A program made the translations under genes and the position numbers. This document shows, piece after piece, positions 5,706-12,762 of a stretch of 15,475 nucleotides of DNA; positions within the stretch are counted from its first letter, which is position 1; the number at the start of each line of letters is the position of its first letter. The stretch covers positions 1-15,475 of the forward strand of contig JASBVU010000008.1 in NCBI GenBank assembly GCA_029960905.1, written 5' to 3'. This DNA is from Thermoanaerobacterium sp. (lineage in GTDB: Bacteria; Bacillota; Thermoanaerobacteria; Thermoanaerobacterales; Thermoanaerobacteraceae). The notes below the pieces were generated by a model. The model was not told the origin of the DNA, made no database searches, and saw only the letters and a program-made list of their open reading frames with translations.

Positions 5706-5880
5706 CTCCGAAGGTGTTTTTCACATCTTAAGGCAGGTCTCCTGGCTTGCGATTCATCTTTAGCTCAACCTTCCCGGTTTCCCCAGTGGCATTTTGAGCC
5801 TCATCATCGCTTACAGTAGCGGGGGCTGCAGCGGCTTCTCACCGCTTTCCCTATTAACCTTTCGGACCTTAAGACTATAT
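5706..5880 (-). promoter_or_regulatory. Cobalamin (B12) riboswitch aptamer
   Basis: The minus strand carries the conserved cobalamin-riboswitch elements in order: AAGGTCC near 5870, GGGAA and GGTGAGAAGCCGCTGCAGC, CCCGCTACTGTAA, GCCACTGGGGAAACCGGGAAGG, and the B12 box AGCCAGGAGACCTGCC at 5747-5732. It begins a few bases after the predicted transcription start and is followed by a terminator hairpin. The downstream genes are a B12-type importer and corrin amidases, matching the known B12 regulon. Outer limits are approximate. The alternative antiterminator pairing was not resolved. Confidence 0.95.
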
Positions 5881-5893
5881 TCAGTTTAACTAT

Positions 5894-5971: not shown

Positions 5972-6088
5972 TCATCTCGTATAAATTTCTACAACTGTAA
6001 TATCCAAAATCACAAACATGATAAATATGGCTAAAATAATTGAAATCAAAATAAACGCATGCAAAATAAACTCCCTATATCTTTTCAT
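5972..6088 (-). CDS. Putative 38-residue single-pass membrane peptide
   Basis: This small gene was translated directly. It begins MKRYREFILHAF, continues with about 22 hydrophobic residues (Ile, Leu, Phe, Ala, Met), and ends DITVVEIYTR. A positive N-terminus and one membrane span suggest an inner-membrane peptide with N-in topology. GGAGG lies about 11 bases before the ATG, slightly far, and another ATG between them is followed at once by a stop. About 80 bases upstream is an ECF-type promoter (6174-6200) matching those of a sigma gene and another small membrane ORF in this window. That shared promoter is the best argument that it is real. No family recognised and no function assigned. It ends about 50 bases before the cobalamin promoter with no clear terminator between. 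Confidence 0.55.
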   Translation of the reverse strand: MKRYREFILHAFILISIILAIFIMFVILDITVVEIYTR

Positions 6089-6173: not shown

Positions 6174-6200
6174 AGACAAATTTTTTCTCGTTTTGTTACA
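6174..6200 (-). promoter_or_regulatory. ECF-sigma-type promoter P2
   Basis: TGTAAC (6200-6195) and GTCT (6177-6174) are separated by 17 bases on the minus strand, followed by TATATATGTGGAGA. The same pattern and spacing occur before the leftward ECF sigma gene (11069-11095) and before the 36-residue ORF (12587-12613). With the latter it also shares the flanking bases AAAA after TGTAAC and AAATTAAT downstream. Expected start of transcription is near 6167. Confidence 0.65.
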
Positions 6201-6227
6201 GTTTTTTTTAAAAAATTTTTTATGTAT

Positions 6228-6247
6228 AAAAAATAGCCCTAAGGCCA
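6228..6247 (-). terminator. Possible weak intrinsic terminator
   Basis: On the minus strand, TGGCC-TTAG-GGCTA can form a 5-bp stem with one G-U pair, followed directly by six T residues. It lies downstream of the ORF ending at 6355 and upstream of ECF-type promoter P2, where a transcription boundary would be expected. The stem is short, so confidence is low. Confidence 0.35.
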
Positions 6248-6354
6248 ATTATCAAATGAAATGTGTAGTATTAAGCATAATGTGTTAATGAGGTTCAAAG
6301 CGCAAGTCCGACGCAAGTTCAAAATTATCATAATAAAAGTACAATATTCCTGAT

Positions 6355-6537
6355 TTAATATCTAAAAAGAATAGCAGCTCCAAACTTCCATCTTTTTTCT
6401 TCTGCAGATTTTATGAAAGCATCCATTTGGGACTTATTGAACTTCATAACGATATAATGTAGCTCTTGATCTCTGCCAACTGTATAGTTATTTTCCAGCT
6501 CGTCTCCATTTATAAAGCGAAAAGCCAAGCCAAACAA
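6355..6537 (-). CDS. Small ORF fragment, probably the C-terminal half of a frameshifted gene
   Basis: This is a 60-codon frame opening at a TTG without a ribosome binding site. The convincing part is its C-terminal 45 residues, soluble and mixed alpha/beta in character: ELHYIVMKFNKSQ, then MDAFIKSAEEKRWKFGAAIL and FRY at the end. It overlaps the end of the 47-residue membrane ORF in another frame. Dropping one A from the AAA near 6507 would join the two into one protein of about 91 residues (membrane segment, then ...LYNGDELENN and this domain). The lack of its own start signal favours that reading, but no homologue was recognised. Not otherwise identifiable. Confidence 0.45.
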   Translation of the reverse strand: MFGLAFRFINGDELENNYTVGRDQELHYIVMKFNKSQMDAFIKSAEEKRWKFGAAILFRY

Positions 6538-6631
6538 TCATTAGTACAGCTATATTAATAAGAAATATTTCATATATGTAAATCATGCGATTACCTAAAT
6601 CCCCTAAGTACAATTGCGTATGTAAATCCAT
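6488..6631 (-). CDS. Putative 47-residue single-pass membrane protein
   Basis: This short frame begins MDLHTQLYLGDLGNRMIYIY, then has one membrane segment (roughly residues 19-41, EIFLINIAVLMIVWLGFSLY) and a basic end, KWRRAGK. Its ribosome binding site is strong: GAGGTGA at 6643-6637, five bases before the ATG. The basic tail would be a natural end for a one-span protein. The overlapping downstream frame (6355-6537) nevertheless suggests it may be the front of a longer, frameshifted gene. It follows the 211-codon gene and a weak hairpin terminator by about 45 bases. No family recognised. Confidence 0.5.
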   Translation of the reverse strand: MDLHTQLYLGDLGNRMIYIYEIFLINIAVLMIVWLGFSLYKWRRAGK

Positions 6632-6675
6632 TACTATCACCTCATATCATATAGCTAATGTAGTAGCTATTTAAG

Positions 6676-6697
6676 AAAAAAAGCTCCACTATGAAGC
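6676..6697 (-). terminator. Weak intrinsic terminator after the 211-codon gene
   Basis: GCTTC-ATAGT-GGAGC on the minus strand forms a 5-bp stem with one G-U pair, followed immediately by seven T residues (6682-6676). It begins two bases after the stop codon of the upstream gene. Confidence 0.55.
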
Positions 6698-6698
6698 A

Positions 6699-7334
6699 TC
6701 AATACATTTTTATATCAAAATTTTGTAGCAATAAATCTTCTTCCCCATCGTCCCATTTTATTATCAGTTTGATTGGCTTTTTGATTGAATCTAATATTTT
6801 CTGCCTTTCATCTGCATCTATTTGAGAGATATTAGGTAGCCATGCAGATCTGCTAACATCAATACAATTATCTTTTTTCTTTGTATTTGGTACATTCAAA
6901 TCTATTTTCTGTTGAATTGGTGTTCCAAAATACAAAAGTCCAGATACTATATAAGGCTCAAGCCCTTTATCAAGGAATGCAACAATTTTAATGTTATTTA
7001 ATTTTTTCTTACTGATGTTCTCAACTCTTACCGTATAATTTAGTGAAGTAAATTCATTTGAATCTTGCATATCTTTTAAATTTCTTGTGATCGTAGAATT
7101 ATTATTTGATATTTGTAGCTTTTTCCCAATCTCAATCGTTGTATTGATTTTAAAATGCTTGCTTTTAGTTGTATAATTTAAATCAGGTGCATCATTTGTT
7201 TGATATAGATAAATCTGAAAATGACTTTTCTTATAGCCGTAGTAATCATAATATATAAAAAGGCTCAAGACAACTGCTGTTATAAAGCCAAATATTATTA
7301 TACGCTTAATTTTTATAAAATCACCTCCAACCAT
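6699..7334 (-). CDS. Hypothetical single-pass membrane protein with an extracytoplasmic domain
   Basis: The open frame is 211 codons. A membrane segment near residues 12-32 (IIIFGFITAVVLSLFIYYD) follows a basic start and is followed by about 175 residues, mostly beta-like and polar, presumably outside the cell. The stretch YTVRVENISKKKLNNIKIV recalls an Ig-like or DUF11-like strand pattern, but I cannot assign a family. The start is odd. The first ATG (7334) has no ribosome binding site, whereas a near-perfect GGAGGTGA (about 7326-7319) lies inside the frame and points at ATA (7316) or ATT, which would give xKIKRIIIFG. The stop of a short upstream ORF overlaps this Shine-Dalgarno sequence, as in operons. 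The last ten codons contain one copy of the 30-bp direct repeat found also at 8555-8584. Confidence 0.7.
   Translation of the reverse strand: MVGGDFIKIKRIIIFGFITAVVLSLFIYYDYYGYKKSHFQIYLYQTNDAPDLNYTTKSKHFKINTTIEIGKKLQISNNNSTITRNLKDMQDSNEFTSLNYTVRVENISKKKLNNIKIVAFLDKGLEPYIVSGLLYFGTPIQQKIDLNVPNTKKKDNCIDVSRSAWLPNISQIDADERQKILDSIKKPIKLIIKWDDGEEDLLLQNFDIKMY
6704..6733. repeat. 30-bp perfect direct repeat, copy A
   Basis: All 30 bases are identical, in the same orientation, to 8555-8584. The core includes the palindrome CAAAATTTTG. This copy lies inside the 3' end of the 211-codon gene. The two copies start 1851 bp apart. Confidence 0.9.
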
Positions 7335-7437
7335 CAGTTATTTTGTCACAACAATTAGAAGCAGTAAAACCAGTTTTTTTAACACACCATGCATCTCCTT
7401 TTTTGTAGTCACTACGCTTCTCGGTACCAAAAAGCAT
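7321..7437 (-). CDS. Short Cys-rich ORF, possibly a remnant
   Basis: The minus strand reads 38 codons from an ATG at 7437 (or 49 from a GTG at 7470) to a TGA at 7323-7321. The C-terminal part has the look of protein: DYKKGDAWCVKK, then TGFTASNCCDKITDGWR, with three cysteines and several aromatic residues. Neither start has a clear ribosome binding site. The stop overlaps the Shine-Dalgarno sequence of the 211-codon gene, suggesting translational coupling. A SigA-like promoter lies just upstream (7488-7516). It may be a genuine small gene or the tail of a gene lost by rearrangement. No family recognised. Confidence 0.35.
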   Translation of the reverse strand: MLFGTEKRSDYKKGDAWCVKKTGFTASNCCDKITDGWR

Positions 7438-7487
7438 ATTGACTACGATTTTATCTGCAGGAAATGGCACCAATTTCTGTTAATGTT

Positions 7488-7516
7488 ATTATAATCCAAT
7501 TATCGTCATCTGGGAA
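7488..7516 (-). promoter_or_regulatory. Probable SigA-type promoter
   Basis: TTCCCA (7516-7511, four of six consensus bases) and TATAAT (7493-7488) are separated by 17 bases on the minus strand. It would drive the short Cys-rich ORF and the 211-codon membrane protein gene. Initiation near 7481 leaves only a very short leader before the GTG at 7470. Confidence 0.5.
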
Positions 7517-7631
7517 GGTGCTAAATTAGGTCAATTTTTTTGTCGTACTTTGTCAATCCATGTAATATATTGTCGAAACTGCGACCGTTTTCCGGTCATC
7601 AATAAATTTATATAATAATTATTACCTCCAT

Positions 7632-7654
7632 AAAAAAGACAGGCATCAAGCCTG
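7632..7654 (-). terminator. Intrinsic terminator after the Rpn-like gene
   Basis: CAGGC-TTGAT-GCCTG on the minus strand (7654-7640), with flanking G-T/T-G extension, is followed by six T residues (7637-7632). It begins ten bases after the stop codon at 7664. Confidence 0.75.
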
Positions 7655-7663
7655 CTTATAATC

Positions 7664-8454
7664 CTAATTCATCAATTTTTTTATCTCCTCTTTTGGCAAC
7701 CCTGTAATCTCTGCTATTCTGTCAATGTCCATACCTTCTTTTAATAATTTTTTTGCTATTGAAATTTTTTCTTCTTTTGCGCCTTTCTCAATACCTTTTT
7801 CTATTATCATTTTGTATGTTTCTGATTCTTCAATTCTAAACATTTTTACCACCTCCGAAAAAACTTTCTCAATAACTTCTCTTTTATAAACTATACCCGA
7901 TAATATCTCTGCCTTAAATGCTATGTCTTTCTTTTTGTTTATATCTAACGGAATATCTTTTATAGCCTCAACACATCTTTCCAAATATTTTCTCCTTCTT
8001 CTTTCCTTCTATTTTGATCCATCAGCGGGAGAAGCGAATATAAATCATAATAATCTGTCCCTACAACATCAGTATATTTTATGTCACCAACATTTATTAT
8101 CCTGTATCTATAGTCTAATGTGTTTTGTTCTCCAAAGTCGTAACTTAAGCTATTTTTCATGTTTGCATTATCTTTGCCTATATAAACAACTATCTGATAT
8201 GGTAAGAGATTATGCTTTTCCATTATCTCAAGCGAATATCTTAACATCCTATAAGGCATTTTTCCGTCATTTTCTGATTGAAATTCTATATGCACAGCGA
8301 CATTTCCTTTATCAGTAGTACATTTGAATATCATGTCGCTGTCCCTTCGTTCTATTCTTGCAAATTCTATATTAAGTTCATCAATCTTTGTATATTGCAA
8401 TCCAAGAAAATAACTCATTATGTCATCAGCCATATCCGAAAAAATATTTTTCAT
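7664..8454 (-). pseudogene. Rpn-family / PD-(D/E)XK nuclease-like transposase, frameshifted
   Basis: Two overlapping frames together make one protein of about 263 residues, normal for recombination-promoting nuclease (Rpn, PDDEXK_2-type) proteins. The N-terminal frame (8454-7960, 164 residues) has the nuclease core: Asp near RRDSDMIF (residues 37-44) and the VHIEFQS strand carrying Glu and Gln (an ExQ variant of ExK), followed by MPYRMLRYSLEIME. The C-terminal frame (to 7664) gives LERCVEAIKDIP and ends in a charged helical tail, EKGAKEEKISIAKKLLKEG. Adding one A to the run near 7990 (GAAAATATTTGG) joins them as EEGEKYLERCVEAI, typical of the family. I therefore call one missing base. The upstream ATG lacks a clear ribosome binding site. 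Known Rpn proteins cleave DNA and promote RecA-independent recombination in E. coli. Activity here is doubtful unless the shift is a sequencing error. Confidence 0.8.
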
Positions 8455-8513
8455 CGTTATATCATATTTCTAGCTCATACTTCTTCCTTCCATTTCTCTT
8501 CATCTCACCTTTA

Positions 8514-8522
8514 ATTATATCA
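8514..8522 (-). promoter_or_regulatory. Extended -10 promoter of the Rpn-like gene
   Basis: TGATATAAT (8522-8514, minus strand) is an extended -10 match. No good -35 is seen at 17 bases (CTGTAT). Initiation near 8507 would leave a leader of about 50 bases before the ATG at 8454. Confidence 0.5.
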
Positions 8523-8554
8523 TATGAATATAAAAAATACAGATTATTGCCATA

Positions 8555-8584
8555 ACATTTTTATATCAAAATTTTGTAGCAATA
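8555..8584. repeat. 30-bp perfect direct repeat, copy B
   Basis: Identical over 30 bases to 6704-6733 but here intergenic, 15 bases after the stop of the propeller protein gene and upstream of the Rpn-like gene promoter. With flanking bases it can form a long hairpin on the minus strand (TATTGC pairing with GCAATA near 8584 and 8545), followed by a T-rich stretch, so it may also act as a weak transcript end. Confidence 0.9.
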
Positions 8585-8599
8585 CTTTAATCCTATATA

Positions 8600-10552
8600 C
8601 TATGGAATGCTTACTTCAGATTTTTCCGGATTGTATTTATAATAGAGATACTGATCATTTGTATTTACATTAAATATGAGCATGTCTTTATCCCAAAAAC
8701 TTGAGTTTAAGGCTTGGATGTCTGTATCTTCAATCAATGATTGCAAATCTATTTTTTTATTATCATTTAAATCGTAGACATACGTTTTAGCTTTATTTTG
8801 TGCTGTCATATAATCTGCTGCAAGGTATCTCCCACTTTCATCGATCTTAAGTTCAAAGAAGCTGCCGCTATTAATACTATCAATCATTTTGAATTTTTTG
8901 CTGTTTAAGTCGTAACTTGCCAATTTCACACTTTGTTTATCTGTCTTTTGTATTGTAAATACGAGAGTATGAGTCTTGCTGCTGTACGCTATTGGTCCAA
9001 ATCTATAGTCTCCATCTGACAAATACTGTTTTGGAATATCGGTTTTGTCAAATAGTTTTACATTACTTTGTCCTTCTACCTTGTACAAAGCGCCATTTTT
9101 AATCACATACTCTTCCTTGCCTATATTTTTTGTACTATCTATTACATAGCCATTGCTGTCGGGTATCAAATAATACCTCGATTTTTCCATGGAATAGTAG
9201 CTATCCATCGTATAGGCGTATTCTAGTACAGCATCAACATATATTTTCCCACCTTCAGTGCCTGACGATAGTATTGTATATCCCACTGGATGAGGATTTG
9301 ATATTGTAAGCAACTGTGGCGGATTTTTCATAAGCATTTTTGCAAAATCATCATCTCTAACTAACAATGCTTGTAAATACCTTCTTACAACATCTTTTGC
9401 ACTGATTTTTTCTTTGCTCAAATCTATCTTCATTAGACGCATTACATTACCATTCACGTCTACATTTTTGTTTTTCATAACGAAAATACTGTTTGAGCTG
9501 CTATTCCAGACAGGATTAAAGTAACTATATAAACCGTTGACAACAAGGCTTTGAGGTAAATTTAATGATTTTAAATTTTTAAGCCAATCTTCAACAACAT
9601 CTTTTTTAGGTATATTTAACGTTATTTGCTTCTTAATTTCAAAATTTGCTGCATCTGTAATCCAAATATTTGACATTGATTCCTTGATGCTTATGTTATC
9701 TTTCATGATATCTGTTTTAATCTGTTGTTTTTCGTATGCAATATAATTGCCATCCGGAGAGACTGATGGGAATCTGCCTTCATCGACTGTTTTTTCAATA
9801 TTGCTATTTAGATCTTTGTACAGTATTTTACCATCTCTTTCGAATACTATCGCATTAACACCCTTTACAAAAGAACCATATGATCCATCAGCGACTTTAT
9901 CAGATTTTAGAGTCTTTAAATCTAATTCGTACAATGATGATTCTTTTTCATAAAATCCGTGATTATCTCTTGGCGCAATAATCTTTTTCGTATAAATCAT
10001 TTTCCTGCCATCAGGTGAAAATGAAGGCTGCTCGTAATATGTGTCTGTATCAGCATTACCGCCTTTTACTAAAAGCCTCGTATTATTTGTCTTAATATAC
10101 TGCTCGTATATACTATTGTCAGATACATATACCAATTTGTTGCCATCTGCGGATATACTTACAAAACCAATATCCCCATCAGCAACTTTAGCAAATCCGT
10201 TATTATTGTACTTATATAATCCTTTATCGGCTATAGACATATAAATCGTGCCGTCATGTTCAGCCATCCCAGCAATATTGTTACCACTTCCTACATCAAC
10301 AAATGACATCTGGTTGGCTATCTTGAGATCTGCTGCACTGATTTTTTGAATAATTGTATCTGGAATTTTCTTGATATTAAAAGAGTAAAGCACCGTCAAT
10401 AAACATGCTGCAGCAGCCGCTGTTATGAAAAGTCTTTTTATCCAATTGTTATTCTTTTTAAATCTCTTGCGAAGCTTCCTCTTTAGTTCCATATTTACAG
10501 GTATTTGCTCTTTTATCCTATTAAGGTTATTTTCTATTCTCTCATCATCCAT
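8600..10552 (-). CDS. Putative membrane anti-sigma factor with TolB/PD40-like propeller domains
   Basis: This 650-residue protein probably restrains the ECF sigma encoded three bases upstream and senses something outside the cell. Residues 1-37 are cytosolic and strongly basic near the end (KRKLRKRFKKNNNWIKR). Residues about 39-60 are one membrane span (LFITAAAAACLLTVLYSF). Outside, PD40/TolB-like strands are visible: VSISADGNKLVYVS, PSFSPDGRKMIYT and PSVSPDGNYIAYE. A middle part around residues 385-490 (DVVRRYLQALLVRDDDFAKM onward) resembles an NTF2-like insert, and a second beta-rich region with YDLNSKKFKMID and YVYDLNDNKKIDL follows. No zinc-binding HxxxCxxC anti-sigma motif is seen. The anti-sigma role is inferred from gene pairing and topology. 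The ligand is unknown. Start ATG 10552 has GGAGGG about 8 bases upstream, inside the end of the sigma gene. Confidence 0.8.
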   Translation of the reverse strand: MDDERIENNLNRIKEQIPVNMELKRKLRKRFKKNNNWIKRLFITAAAAACLLTVLYSFNIKKIPDTIIQKISAADLKIANQMSFVDVGSGNNIAGMAEHDGTIYMSIADKGLYKYNNNGFAKVADGDIGFVSISADGNKLVYVSDNSIYEQYIKTNNTRLLVKGGNADTDTYYEQPSFSPDGRKMIYTKKIIAPRDNHGFYEKESSLYELDLKTLKSDKVADGSYGSFVKGVNAIVFERDGKILYKDLNSNIEKTVDEGRFPSVSPDGNYIAYEKQQIKTDIMKDNISIKESMSNIWITDAANFEIKKQITLNIPKKDVVEDWLKNLKSLNLPQSLVVNGLYSYFNPVWNSSSNSIFVMKNKNVDVNGNVMRLMKIDLSKEKISAKDVVRRYLQALLVRDDDFAKMLMKNPPQLLTISNPHPVGYTILSSGTEGGKIYVDAVLEYAYTMDSYYSMEKSRYYLIPDSNGYVIDSTKNIGKEEYVIKNGALYKVEGQSNVKLFDKTDIPKQYLSDGDYRFGPIAYSSKTHTLVFTIQKTDKQSVKLASYDLNSKKFKMIDSINSGSFFELKIDESGRYLAADYMTAQNKAKTYVYDLNDNKKIDLQSLIEDTDIQALNSSFWDKDMLIFNVNTNDQYLYYKYNPEKSEVSIP

Positions 10553-10555
10553 CTT

Positions 10556-11044
10556 TTAACCCTCCAAGCAAATATTTACAAGCTTCTTGAGCTTCTGAAT
10601 TATTCTGTATGATTTCATCTTAACTGCATCCTCAGTTTTATCAAGCAATAATGATAATTCTTTGTTTGACAAATTTGAAAAATATTTAAGCCCTACTATC
10701 TCAATTTCCTCCTTCGGTAAACTGTATAATGATTTTTTTAAGCAGTTTAGCTCCGCTTCCTTATCAAACTTATTTTCAAAGACATCTGGATATGTGAAAG
10801 CATCAAGGTCGTCGCCAAACGCTATATCTTTTTTCTTTTTGTAAAAATCTACGACTGTATTTCTTGCTATTGCGAAAATCCATGCTTTTACATTAGAATT
10901 GATACTGCCGTAATTTTCATACGCTTTTTTGAAAATATCGCTGACAATGTCATCCACATCCCAACCATTGCCAACCTTAAAATACACGTATCTGTAGACA
11001 TCGTCGAAAAAACTTTCATATATGTCTAAAAAATTTCTTTTCAC
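10556..11044 (-). CDS. ECF-type RNA polymerase sigma factor (leftward module)
   Basis: A group 4 sigma factor of 162 residues. Region 2 spans roughly residues 8-70 (YESFFDDVYRYVYFKVG, then DVDDIVSDIFKKAYENYG and WIFAIARNTVVDFYKKKK). Region 4 lies near the C-terminus (LPKEEIEIVGLKYFSNLSNK, then KTEDAVKMKSYRIIQKLKK). The frame stays open back to an ATG at 11086, but I choose GTG at 11044: GGAGGGAGG (11060-11052) lies seven bases before it, and the ATG falls inside the ECF-type promoter, upstream of the expected transcription start. The GTG start gives MKRNFLDIYESF, typical of the family. The promoter (11069-11095) has an ECF-like pattern, implying autoregulation. The next gene, three bases downstream, encodes its likely membrane anti-sigma factor. 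Confidence 0.88.
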   Translation of the reverse strand: MKRNFLDIYESFFDDVYRYVYFKVGNGWDVDDIVSDIFKKAYENYGSINSNVKAWIFAIARNTVVDFYKKKKDIAFGDDLDAFTYPDVFENKFDKEAELNCLKKSLYSLPKEEIEIVGLKYFSNLSNKELSLLLDKTEDAVKMKSYRIIQKLKKLVNICLEG

Positions 11045-11068
11045 CGCCAAACCTCCCTCCAAATATAT

Positions 11069-11095
11069 AGACGAATTAATTTTCATATAGTAACA
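11069..11095 (-). promoter_or_regulatory. ECF-sigma-type promoter P1 of the leftward sigma gene
   Basis: TGTTAC (11095-11090) and GTCT (11072-11069, preceded by C to give CGTCT) are separated by 17 bases on the minus strand, followed by ATATATTTGGAG. The pattern recurs at 6174-6200 and 12587-12613. Predicted initiation near 11062 gives a leader of only about 18 bases that is nearly all Shine-Dalgarno. Confidence 0.7.
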
Positions 11096-11201
11096 CTTTT
11101 TATAATAAATTTATTTTTGCAATTTTAAGTATAAATATCTACAAAAACATATTTTATTACATGCAGAAATTTTTGTTAAATATCTCACAGGAAAAGTTTT
11201 A

Positions 11202-11210
11202 TGATATAAT
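11202..11210 (+). promoter_or_regulatory. Extended -10 promoter of the rightward sigma gene
   Basis: TGATATAAT is an extended -10 match about 55 bases before the preferred TTG start at 11266. No convincing -35 is seen 17 bases upstream, and no copy of the ECF-type pattern was found here, so this module looks SigA-driven rather than autoregulated. Confidence 0.5.
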
Positions 11211-11265
11211 CTATTTGACATGCTTAAAATTTTGTGGATTAGCATGGACAAGGGAGGGAAAAAAT

Positions 11266-11823
11266 TTGCTCATCTTATTTGACACAATTACAGATGAAAG
11301 TCAAAGGAAAAAGGTCGAAGATATATATGTAAATTACAGTAAAGATATGTTTAAAGTAGCATACAACATTTTAAACGACTATCAATTAGCACAAGATGCT
11401 GTCCAATCTGCTTTCATAAATATTATCAACTACATCGAAAAAATTTCTGATTATGACTGTAACAAAATAAGGGCATTAGTTGTTATTATAGTTAGAAACA
11501 TCTCAATAAATATGTACAAACAAATAAAGCGGCAAAAAAATTTATTTATTGAAGATGCAGATGAGTTTTTCCATGATGACTCAGAGCCATTTGACGAGAA
11601 GTTAATAAACGGTGACATTTTTAGAAGAGTATCCGAAAAGGTAAAGGAGCTAAAAACAGAGTACGCAGACATTATTTCTTTAAAATACTACTACGGATAC
11701 TCCAATAAAGACATCGCAAATCTTTTAAACATCACACAAGACAATGTAAGGATAAGACTGTATCGTGCGCGGCAAAGCCTTAAGAATGCTTTATACGAAT
11801 ATAAAGGAGATGTGAAAATATGA
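11266..11823 (+). CDS. ECF-type RNA polymerase sigma factor (rightward module)
   Basis: A group 4 sigma factor of 185 residues. Region 2 includes YVNYSKDMFKVAYNILNDY, QLAQDAVQSAFINIINYIEK and VVIIVRNISINMYKQIKRQK. Region 4 includes KTEYADIISLKYYYGYSNKD and IANLLNITQDNVRIRLYRAR. The two are joined by an acidic linker rich in Asp and Glu. The frame extends back to an ATG at 11161, but that lies upstream of the predicted promoter and lacks a ribosome binding site. The TTG at 11266 follows AGGGAGGG (11251-11258) by seven bases and gives a normal family length, so I choose it. The stop overlaps the next start by four bases (ATGA), coupling it to its likely anti-sigma factor. It is divergent from the other ECF module. 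Confidence 0.87.
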   Translation: MLILFDTITDESQRKKVEDIYVNYSKDMFKVAYNILNDYQLAQDAVQSAFINIINYIEKISDYDCNKIRALVVIIVRNISINMYKQIKRQKNLFIEDADEFFHDDSEPFDEKLINGDIFRRVSEKVKELKTEYADIISLKYYYGYSNKDIANLLNITQDNVRIRLYRARQSLKNALYEYKGDVKI

Positions 11824-12575
11824 AAGACCTTTACGATGAAAAGCTAAAATCTGAAAGCAAAATATTTGAAGCATTGCTGGAATATGCAGGGGCTTGCCAT
11901 GTAAACAACATAATTAACGATCTCGATGCAGAAGCCAATGGTGAAGAAGTACCTTATCCTGAAGAATTAAGCATTAAAATCAGAAAGATGTTAAGACATC
12001 ACAAAAGAAAAGAAGCAGTCAAAAAGTTCTTCACATCGGCAAAAAAAGTTTTCCCAAAAGTTGCGGTATTCTTCTTTGTGGCTTTTATTGGCTTCACTTT
12101 GGCAATAACAACTGTTTCTGCCTTTAGAGCTCGCGTATTTAACCTCATAATTGAAATCAAAAAAGATTATACAGACATAAAATTAAAAGAAAACAGTGAG
12201 CCTAATGCATCTTCTTCAACATCAATGGTGCCAGCCAACTGGGAAAATGAATATTATCTTTCATACGTACCACATGGGTTCAAGATAAGCAAGGTAGAGT
12301 CACAGGAAATAACCAAAATCATTCAGTATACAAATGATAAAGGTGATTTCATAATTTTCAGCCAAAGTTCCAATGAAAACACTGATATGATGGTAGACAC
12401 AGAAAATGCTGTCACACAAAAGATTGATGTAAACGGCTATGAGGGTATCTTAGTCCAAAAAAATGGTTTAAACACCATTGTCTGGAGGAAAGACAACAAT
12501 TTATTCTCTTTAATGTCTAAAATCGATAAAAATGAGCTCATAAAAGCTGCCAATAGCATCAAACTGAAAAAATAA
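11820..12575 (+). CDS. Putative single-pass anti-sigma factor (DUF4367-like)
   Basis: A 251-residue protein that probably holds the adjacent ECF sigma at the membrane. Residues 1-78 are cytosolic and charged (MKDLYDEKLKSESKIFEALL onward, then a basic stretch HHKRKEAVKKFF). Residues about 80-102 form one membrane span (VAVFFFVAFIGFTLAITTVS). The outer domain has the DUF4367 look: NWENEYYLSYVPHGFKISKV, IIQYTNDKGDFIIFSQS, VNGYEGILVQKNGLNTIVWR and a terminal helix ELIKAANSIKLKK. No zinc anti-sigma motif is seen. Its ATG overlaps the sigma stop by four bases, the standard arrangement of sigma/anti-sigma pairs. Assignment to DUF4367 is by eye; the anti-sigma role is inferred from context. An ECF-type promoter begins 12 bases after the stop. 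Confidence 0.82.
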   Translation: MKDLYDEKLKSESKIFEALLEYAGACHVNNIINDLDAEANGEEVPYPEELSIKIRKMLRHHKRKEAVKKFFTSAKKVFPKVAVFFFVAFIGFTLAITTVSAFRARVFNLIIEIKKDYTDIKLKENSEPNASSSTSMVPANWENEYYLSYVPHGFKISKVESQEITKIIQYTNDKGDFIIFSQSSNENTDMMVDTENAVTQKIDVNGYEGILVQKNGLNTIVWRKDNNLFSLMSKIDKNELIKAANSIKLKK

Positions 12576-12586
12576 TTTATTTTAAC

Positions 12587-12613
12587 TGTAACAAAATTAA
12601 TGCTTATTTGTCT
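12587..12613 (+). promoter_or_regulatory. ECF-sigma-type promoter P3
   Basis: TGTAAC (12587-12592) and GTCT (12610-12613) are 17 bases apart, followed by AATATATATGGAGA and, slightly further, AAATTAATATAG. Both the boxes and the downstream bases match promoter P2 (6174-6200). It lies 12 bases after the anti-sigma gene and 39 bases before the 36-residue ORF. Confidence 0.65.
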
Positions 12614-12651: not shown

Positions 12652-12762
12652 ATGTTGAAGAAGAATTTTATTAGAGCATTTTTAATAGTCTTTTTAATCA
12701 TAGTCGTAAACTATGCGATATTTTACGGCATATTTTCTCTATATATGGCCATTCATCCCTGA
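12652..12762 (+). CDS. Putative 36-residue single-pass membrane peptide
   Basis: The frame begins MLKKNFIRAF, continues with a long hydrophobic segment of Leu, Ile, Val and Phe (LIVFLIIVVNYAIFYGIFSL) and ends YMAIHP. GAGGGG (12641-12646) lies five bases before the ATG, a strong ribosome binding site for so small an ORF. It is preceded by ECF-type promoter P3 and followed about 35 bases later by a hairpin terminator, making a complete transcription unit. Size, positive N-terminus, single span and promoter resemble the 38-residue ORF at 5972-6088, though sequence similarity between the peptides is weak. No family recognised. Possible roles, such as a membrane-stress peptide or a modulator of a membrane protein, are only guesses. 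Confidence 0.65.
   Translation: MLKKNFIRAFLIVFLIIVVNYAIFYGIFSLYMAIHP

What the first reader, a model, noticed from the sequence alone, without database searches (positions are those of the whole stretch)
6174..12613. Three matching ECF-type promoters link a sigma factor to two tiny membrane peptides
Seen: TGTAAC/TGTTAC, 17 bases, GTCT, then an ATATAT-n-TGGAG stretch occurs at 11095-11069 (before the leftward ECF sigma gene), 6200-6174 (before a 38-residue membrane ORF) and 12587-12613 (before a 36-residue membrane ORF). Spacing is the same in all three, and the last two also share flanking bases. Known: ECF sigma factors usually drive their own operon and use short -35/-10 boxes of this kind. 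Inference: this sigma is autoregulated and its regulon includes very small membrane proteins, an output rarely annotated. The conserved bases reach past the -10 box into the start region, which is unusual. The other sigma in the window could be the one that reads them.
Basis: partly seen in the sequence, partly recalled or inferred. Interest (0 to 1): 0.78.

Follow-up and report, generated by a model that had tools for sequence, protein, structure and literature searches.

The report
Sigma-factor regulon with tiny membrane peptides
Three look-alike switches in this heat-loving bacterium's DNA are real and belong to a larger family of switches that is probably read by the right-hand of two neighbouring sigma factors, not the left-hand one, and that turns on, among other genes, two conserved membrane peptides of only 36 and 38 amino acids.

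Summary
P1 and P3 belong to a Thermoanaerobacterium-wide family: a strict form has 41 matches in 9 of 9 genus genomes, 1 in 28 others of the class (a truncated gene) and 0 reversed controls. The likely reader is the rightward ECF sigma, sig2, paired with a DUF4367 membrane anti-sigma. The leftward sig1 is in 2 of 9 genomes, yet P3 is found in 9 of 9 and P1 in 8 of 9. Diverged sig2/anti-sigma pairs (35-38% identity) in Thermotalea, Caloramator and others have a similar promoter 36-309 bases after the anti-sigma gene, before proteins related to Thermoanaerobacterium targets. sig2 itself has a SigA-like promoter, so the motif does not autoregulate it. The 36- and 38-residue membrane ORFs look like real genes (pN/pS 0.32, 0.24). 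In sister strains other outputs are GAF-LuxR-type regulators, secreted proteins, a VanZ-like protein and a lipoprotein. P2, before sig1, is divergent and its reader open. No transcription data; function is inferred.

The parts
6174..6200 (-). P1: TGTAAC-N17-GTCT promoter before the 38-aa ORF
   Evidence: found before pep38 in 8 of 9 genus genomes with N17 (3) or N18 (5); not found in G005
5972..6088 (-). pep38, 38-aa single-helix membrane peptide MKRYREFILHAF...VVEIYTR
   Evidence: found in 8 of 9 genus genomes, pN/pS 0.24
11069..11095 (-). P2: divergent site TGTTAC-N17-GTCT before sig1
   Evidence: present in both genomes that have sig1 (G000, G002)
10556..11044 (-). sig1, leftward ECF sigma factor (start GTG 11044 or TTG 11050)
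   Evidence: Sigma70_r2 6e-12; r4_2 5e-4, below its cut-off; TIGR02937 over cut-off; 2 of 9 genus genomes
8600..10552 (-). anti1, probable membrane anti-sigma with PD40/TolB-like propeller
   Evidence: PD40 7.5e-12, TolB-like 4.9e-7, far below the model's cut-off
11202..11210 (+). extended -10 (TGATATAAT) of the SigA-like sig2 promoter
   Evidence: conserved upstream of sig2 in 9 of 9 genus genomes
11266..11823 (+). sig2, rightward ECF sigma factor (TTG start), best candidate reader of P1 and P3
   Evidence: Sigma70_r4_2 1.6e-11, r2 1.5e-6; 9 of 9 genus genomes
11820..12575 (+). anti2, DUF4367 membrane protein, probable anti-sigma of sig2 (overlaps sig2 by 4 bases)
   Evidence: PF14285 3.7e-23; 9 of 9 genus genomes; residues from about 141 to 250 modelled at block-mean pLDDT 68-91, nearly all the rest below 50
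12587..12613 (+). P3: TGTAAC-N17-GTCT promoter directly after anti2
   Evidence: TGTAAC invariant in 9 of 9 genus genomes, -10 GTCT or GTTT in 8 of 9
12652..12762 (+). pep36, 36-aa single-helix membrane peptide MLKKNFIRAFL...AIHP
   Evidence: 9 of 9 genus genomes, pN/pS 0.32

Best explanation
P1 and P3 are promoters of the ECF sigma factor sig2 (11266-11823), which the DUF4367 membrane protein anti2 holds back. sig2/anti2 are made from a SigA-type extended -10 promoter, so the motif gives no positive feedback. When an unknown extracytoplasmic signal frees sig2, RNA polymerase-sig2 reads an A/T tract plus TGTAAC, 16-17 bases, TGT(C/T), with TATATT-like and G/A-rich bases beyond. It transcribes pep36 directly downstream of anti2, pep38 about 5 kb away and, in sister strains, DhaR-like GAF-HTH regulators (a second regulatory tier), secreted proteins, a VanZ-like protein and a lipoprotein. 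I infer an envelope or antimicrobial-peptide stress response in which the two peptides act in the membrane, either as protection or as feedback on the sigma/anti-sigma complex. P2 before sig1 is a divergent copy, read by sig1 itself or by sig2. Shown: sites, conservation, co-occurrence, architecture and selection on the peptides. Inferred: sigma-promoter recognition, signal and peptide function.
For: Co-occurrence: strict sites in 9 of 9 genus genomes and 1 of 28 others, there before a truncated gene; sig2 in 9 of 9 and at 35-38% identity in a few others. Position: P3 follows anti2 in 9 of 9; 5 of 9 also have a divergent site before a GAF-HTH gene next to sig2 and 2 of 9 have P2/sig1 there. 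Diverged systems: TGTCAC-N18-GT(C/T)T with a similar A/T tract and downstream bases lies after the anti-sigma gene in 7 of 7 loci outside the genus (36-38 bases after in 6, 309 in L261), and TGTCAC-N18-GTCA 266 bases after that of the G001 paralog. Outside the genus, 4 of 4 genomes with a sig2-like sigma have this pattern against 1 of 24 without. Targets are related across systems: secreted proteins at 32% and 47% identity. -35 'AAC' and -10 'CGT' are stated ECF hallmarks (PMC8103513, passages).
Against: No transcript or binding data. In the window's own fragmented assembly no further family member turned up beyond these sites, so the wider regulon is seen only in relatives. The nine genus genomes are one clade, and the seven outside loci resemble each other closely (probably spread by transfer), so independent lineages number about three. 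11 of 27 distinct N17 sites have GTTT instead of GTCT, weaker than CGTC. Inner spacer positions pair as an inverted repeat beyond a shuffle control (84 against 67.6 expected, 0 of 2000), which fits an operator as well. The pattern was written from four of the loci it finds, and its reversed control has 3 hits in 37 genomes against 8 real hits.
Confidence: 0.8

Rival explanations
1. The leftward sigma sig1 reads all three sites, is autoregulated and controls both peptides.
For: P2 sits before sig1 in both genomes that have sig1 and keeps TGTTAC/CGTCT while the spacer changes; ECF sigma factors are often autoregulated (around 55%, PMC8103513, passage).
Against: No sig1 ortholog in 7 of 9 genomes, in which P3 (7 of 7) and P1 (6 of 7) persist. 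P2 differs in the -35 box and in the base before GTC.
Confidence: 0.07
2. The motif is the operator of the GAF-LuxR regulators that often follow it, acting on a SigA promoter with TATATT as -10.
For: Many sites precede DhaR-like GAF-HTH genes; spacers of one subset are inverted repeats such as ACAAATTTCT-T-AGAAATTTGT; TATATT is nearly constant, though partly imposed by my pattern.
Against: TGTA outside the repeat is constant and has no symmetric partner; an A/T tract abuts it like an UP element; P1 has N17 or N18; sites before the 144-aa secreted protein and P2 are not palindromic (by eye); no TTGACA-like box at SigA distance (by eye).
Confidence: 0.1
3. Another alternative sigma of the genus reads the sites (above all the SigW-like L210 group or the L209 group).
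For: Besides sig2 these are the only groups among my 58 ECF-size genes that occur in G007, which has P1, P3 and a strict site: L209 in 9 of 9 genomes, L210 in 8 of 9. A third group is in 8 of 9 but not in G007.
Against: L210-type sigma is in 11 of 28 non-genus genomes, of which only G010 has a strict site, before a truncated gene; L209-type is in G009 and G020, which have no strict site, though G020 has one 2-mismatch N18 hit without an A/T tract. I saw no site beside either gene but did not scan for that systematically.
Confidence: 0.05

Closest known systems
ECF sigma / membrane anti-sigma systems of Firmicutes (SigM, SigW, SigX class; promoter consensus recalled)
   Same: two-domain sigma, co-encoded transmembrane anti-sigma, -35 box ending in AAC, -10 box around GT, scattered promoters, envelope-type outputs
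   Different: sig2 is not autoregulated through the motif; conservation runs from an upstream A/T tract past the -10 box; anti-sigma has a DUF4367 domain; outputs include 36- and 38-aa membrane peptides and, in relatives, GAF-LuxR regulators
Bacillus subtilis sigM-yhdL-yhdK (PMC6827917, passages read)
   Same: a second membrane protein encoded next to sigma and anti-sigma; there YhdK is needed for full anti-sigma activity
   Different: YhdK is in the sigM operon and sigM is autoregulated; pep36 has its own promoter and is 36 aa; no similarity was tested
DhaR-type GAF regulators (NCBIfam NF008485)
   Same: N-terminal sensor region of the four kinds of regulator matches DhaR at E 2.9e-14 to 7.6e-11, far below the model's cut-off
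   Different: they are 249-272 aa against a 643-position DhaR model, and two of the four end in a clear LuxR/GerE HTH

Membership tests
ECF sigma factor (sig2) | only sigma2 and sigma4 domains | tested here: met
   Pfam r2 at 31-99 and r4_2 at 131-182 of a 195-aa frame, no region-3 family among the 5 listed; above TIGR02937 cut-off, 76.1 against 42.9 bits
ECF sigma factor (sig2) | co-encoded anti-sigma factor | tested here: inconclusive
   anti2 overlaps sig2 by 4 bases, has a hydrophobic segment (by eye) and DUF4367; binding to sig2 not testable
ECF promoter (P1, P3) | -35 box with AAC | tested here: met
   TGTAAC in P1 and P3 and in all 9 P3 orthologs; in the 27 distinct N17 sites it was partly imposed by the search pattern
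ECF promoter (P1, P3) | -10 box CGT | tested here: inconclusive
   TGT(C/T) instead of CGT in P1, P3 and their relatives; CGTC only in P2
ECF sigma factor (sig2) | positive autoregulation (typical, not defining) | tested here: not met
   conserved TGATATAAT upstream of sig2 in 9 of 9; no sense-strand site upstream in the scans
ECF group of the published classification | group-level profile match | not tested
   no group models at hand

The most novel reading that the evidence does not exclude
pep36 is a dedicated third component of the sig2/anti2 system: a 36-residue membrane peptide, induced by the sigma from its own promoter directly after the anti-sigma gene, that binds the membrane anti-sigma and sets or ends the response; pep38 is a spread-out relative doing the same for another membrane partner.
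Probability: 0.2. Interest if true: 0.75.

Novelty: new variant of a known kind. Interest (0 to 1): 0.57.

Why it matters
It gives a testable sigma-to-promoter assignment for an ECF family with a DUF4367 anti-sigma. The term DUF4367 occurs in no paper of the held library, and the only paper there that holds both 'Thermoanaerobacterium' and 'ECF sigma' is about Lactobacillus sakei (listing seen). The regulon ties two membrane peptides of under 40 residues, a size class that annotation usually skips, to a stress-type sigma, and shows a promoter whose conserved stretch runs from an upstream A/T tract past the -10 box across systems whose sigma factors are only 35-38% identical.

Tried and rejected
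Rejected: sig1 as reader of P1/P3 (found in 2 of 9 genomes). Disfavoured: two other conserved sigma orthogroups. Kept as a rival: operator of the GAF-LuxR regulators. Dropped by eye: the upstream TATAAA-like stretch as a SigA -10 box, because P1, P3 and the 266-aa GAF family lack it next to the site.

Led nowhere: my first motif pattern had a spacer one base too long, but it exposed the N18 form of P1. A first sigma clustering lost most genes to an over-strict filter and was redone on 58 genes of ECF size picked; I left out G008:C22:47469, G002:C10:40654 and G004:C77:3691 and the larger frames, so group counts are lower bounds. Absence of P1 in G005 rests on whole-genome pattern searches; the pep38 gene was sought there only in the stretches fetched. 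A homology search of the peptides was not possible: the tool's minimum is 40 aa and my coordinates for pep36 were off. Second N18 sites in G026 and G033 have no clear gene close behind them. Paper searches gave nothing on this system in what was listed: TGTAAC/ECF (5 listed), ECF plus small membrane protein (5), TGAAAC/CGTA (0), YxlD/YxlE (8 of 10), ECF classification (10 of 11), Thermoanaerobacterium with sigma factor or small peptide (12 of 292). Passages of PMC7406223 were seen and not used.
Full report
WHAT IS THERE. The three sites are at the stated places with the stated letters. The exact pattern TGTWAC-N17-GTCT occurs 8 times in the 2.64-Mb assembly, 3 of them here; the reversed control occurs 6 times; chance of three in 15.5 kb is 4e-6 to 7e-6. 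The other 5 hits were not examined further. P1 precedes a 38-aa ORF (6088-5972), P2 the leftward ECF sigma sig1 (10556-11044), P3 a 36-aa ORF (12652-12762). The window lies in a draft assembly of 606 contigs, 89% complete. The genus is Thermoanaerobacterium: a same-genus genome (G008, contig of 100,886 bases) matches the named record of T. butyriciformans DSM 101588 in contig length and place.

THE NEIGHBOURS. sig2 (11266-11823) and anti2 (11820-12575, DUF4367) run rightward and 11 bases separate anti2 from P3; sig1 and anti1 (PD40 propeller) run leftward. pep38 lies upstream of a cobalamin riboswitch (5715-5886).

CONSERVATION. sig2/anti2 are in 9 of 9 genus genomes, sig1 in 2 of 9, this genome and G002. 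P3 and pep36 follow anti2 in 9 of 9; TGTAAC is invariant, most of the spacer varies, the -10 is GTCT or GTTT in 8 and GTAT in G005. pep38 with its site was found in 8 of 9, with N17 in 3 and N18 in 5. In G005 no P1-like site turned up in whole-genome pattern searches; the gene was sought there only in fetched stretches. Both peptides are under purifying selection (pN/pS 0.32 and 0.24). So P1 and P3 do not need sig1.

A LARGER REGULON. A strict form, TGTAACRAA-N11-WTTGTYTTATATT with up to 1 mismatch, has 42 matches in 37 class genomes: 41 in the 9 genus genomes, 1 elsewhere, 0 for the reversed control. The outside one (G010) heads a truncated copy of a GAF-regulator gene. By my count of the rows, 24 of the 41 lie on the sig2 contig within 50 kb of sig2. 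In the window's own assembly the relaxed and strict scans find only P1, P2 and P3, so the wider regulon is seen in relatives. A script listing (67 pattern matches by the count, including evident chance hits and reverse-strand echoes, not filtered) shows genes behind sites: GAF-HTH regulators of four kinds, all matching the DhaR sensor region well below the model's cut-off, two with clear GerE/LuxR HTH; a 144-aa secreted protein and 36-aa short forms of it; a VanZ-like protein (2.5e-22); a lipoprotein (by its signal sequence, by eye); a 76-aa HTH protein; and membrane proteins without a family. One regulator lies before a PqqD/radical-SAM-like gene pair and a Cys-containing 54-aa ORF in G006 (read by eye).

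WHO READS IT. (1) sig2 and sites share their distribution. Among the ECF-size genes that I clustered (58, three rows left out) only two groups besides sig2 occur in G007, which has sites; both also occur outside the genus, in 11 and 2 of 28 genomes, without strict sites except the G010 remnant. (2) Sites flank sig2/anti2: P3 in 9 of 9, and a divergent site before a GAF-HTH gene in 5 of 9 (G001, G004, G005, G006; G008); 2 of 9 have P2/sig1 in that slot; in G003 and G007 one search found neither. (3) Diverged sig2/anti-sigma pairs show the same plan: TGTCAC-N18-GT(C/T)TTATTT with an A/T tract before and TGAAGA-like bases after, in L018-L020 and L258-L261 (7 of 7), 36-38 bases after the anti-sigma gene in six and 309 in L261. 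The G001 paralog has TGTCAC-N18-GTCATAAT 266 bases after its anti-sigma gene. Their downstream secreted proteins are related to Thermoanaerobacterium proteins that sit behind sites: 32% identity, E 4e-8, and 47%, E 4e-40, there the second gene behind the site in G006. (4) Outside the genus the N18 pattern is in 4 of 4 genomes with a sig2-like sigma and 1 of 24 without, Fisher P 2.4e-4. That pattern was written from four of the loci it finds, so only its absence elsewhere is informative; it has 8 hits in all 37 genomes, and 3 when reversed.

WHY A SIGMA AND NOT A REPRESSOR. -35 with AAC and -10 with CGT are described ECF hallmarks, later relaxed to the two-domain build alone (PMC8103513, passages). 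TGTA is constant outside the partial inverted repeat and has no mirror partner, and an A/T tract abuts it. Against: 11 of 27 distinct N17 sites read GTTT, and inner spacer positions pair more often than shuffles (84 against 67.6; 0 of 2000 reach it; related sequences inflate this). The invariance of the boxes in that table was partly imposed by my search pattern.

AUTOREGULATION. sig2 has a conserved extended -10 (TTTTATGATATAAT) in 9 of 9 and no sense-strand site upstream was found. P2 may autoregulate sig1 or put sig1 under sig2; I hold these about equal.

MECHANISM. anti2 has, by eye, a cytoplasmic N-terminus and a hydrophobic stretch; its C-terminal domain (from about residue 141) is modelled at block-mean pLDDT 68-91, nearly all the rest below 50, mean 57.9. 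A signal frees sig2, which switches on pep36, pep38 and the others. The envelope-stress reading rests on the kind of genes and on known ECF biology, not on a test. A precedent for a second membrane protein beside an anti-sigma is YhdK of B. subtilis SigM (PMC6827917, passages).

VERDICT. Observation confirmed, interpretation half right: a real ECF-type promoter family with tiny membrane peptides as output, but most likely read by the rightward sigma.

Noticed in passing
L141 (G006) near G006:C1:159041 and 166755; L175 near G005:C1:17023; L137 near G008:C17:68414: Motif sites precede 36-aa ORFs with a signal peptide and a short tail ending in HWY, alike at both ends to a 144-aa secreted protein but lacking its middle; they could be peptide signals or deletion relics.
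   Followed up: partly
L117 (G006:C1:2316352-2319863): A site precedes a GAF-LuxR regulator directly before PqqD-like and radical-SAM-like genes and a 54-aa Cys-containing ORF, resembling a modified-peptide cluster (by eye).
   Followed up: no
G006:C1:2273213-2273344 (L115), G005:C1:771355-771487 (L127), G008:C6:76370-76502 (L135): A 43-aa paralog of pep38 with the same IVKIY-type C-terminus but no motif in the bases shown upstream.
   Followed up: partly
spacers of sites in L123, L124, L027, L018, L022: Several spacers between -35 and -10 are inverted repeats (ACAAATTTCT-T-AGAAATTTGT, CAAAAG-CCT-CTTTTG, AAATGTACATTT); others are not. Unexplained; perhaps a second regulator.
   Followed up: partly
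window 5715-5886 (-): Cobalamin riboswitch (RF00174, 120 bits) between pep38 and the btuF-like operon, so P1 read-through would meet it.
   Followed up: no
window 6355-6537 and 7664-8454: The short ORF at 6355-6537 resembles the inside of a 220-aa membrane protein of relatives (by eye), and the YhgA-like gene is split into two overlapping ORFs although several relatives have 270-290 aa in one frame; both look decayed here.
   Followed up: no
L172 (G010:C5:332563): One genome of a related genus carries a perfect site before a truncated GAF-regulator gene and has no sig2 ortholog: probably transferred and decayed.
   Followed up: yes
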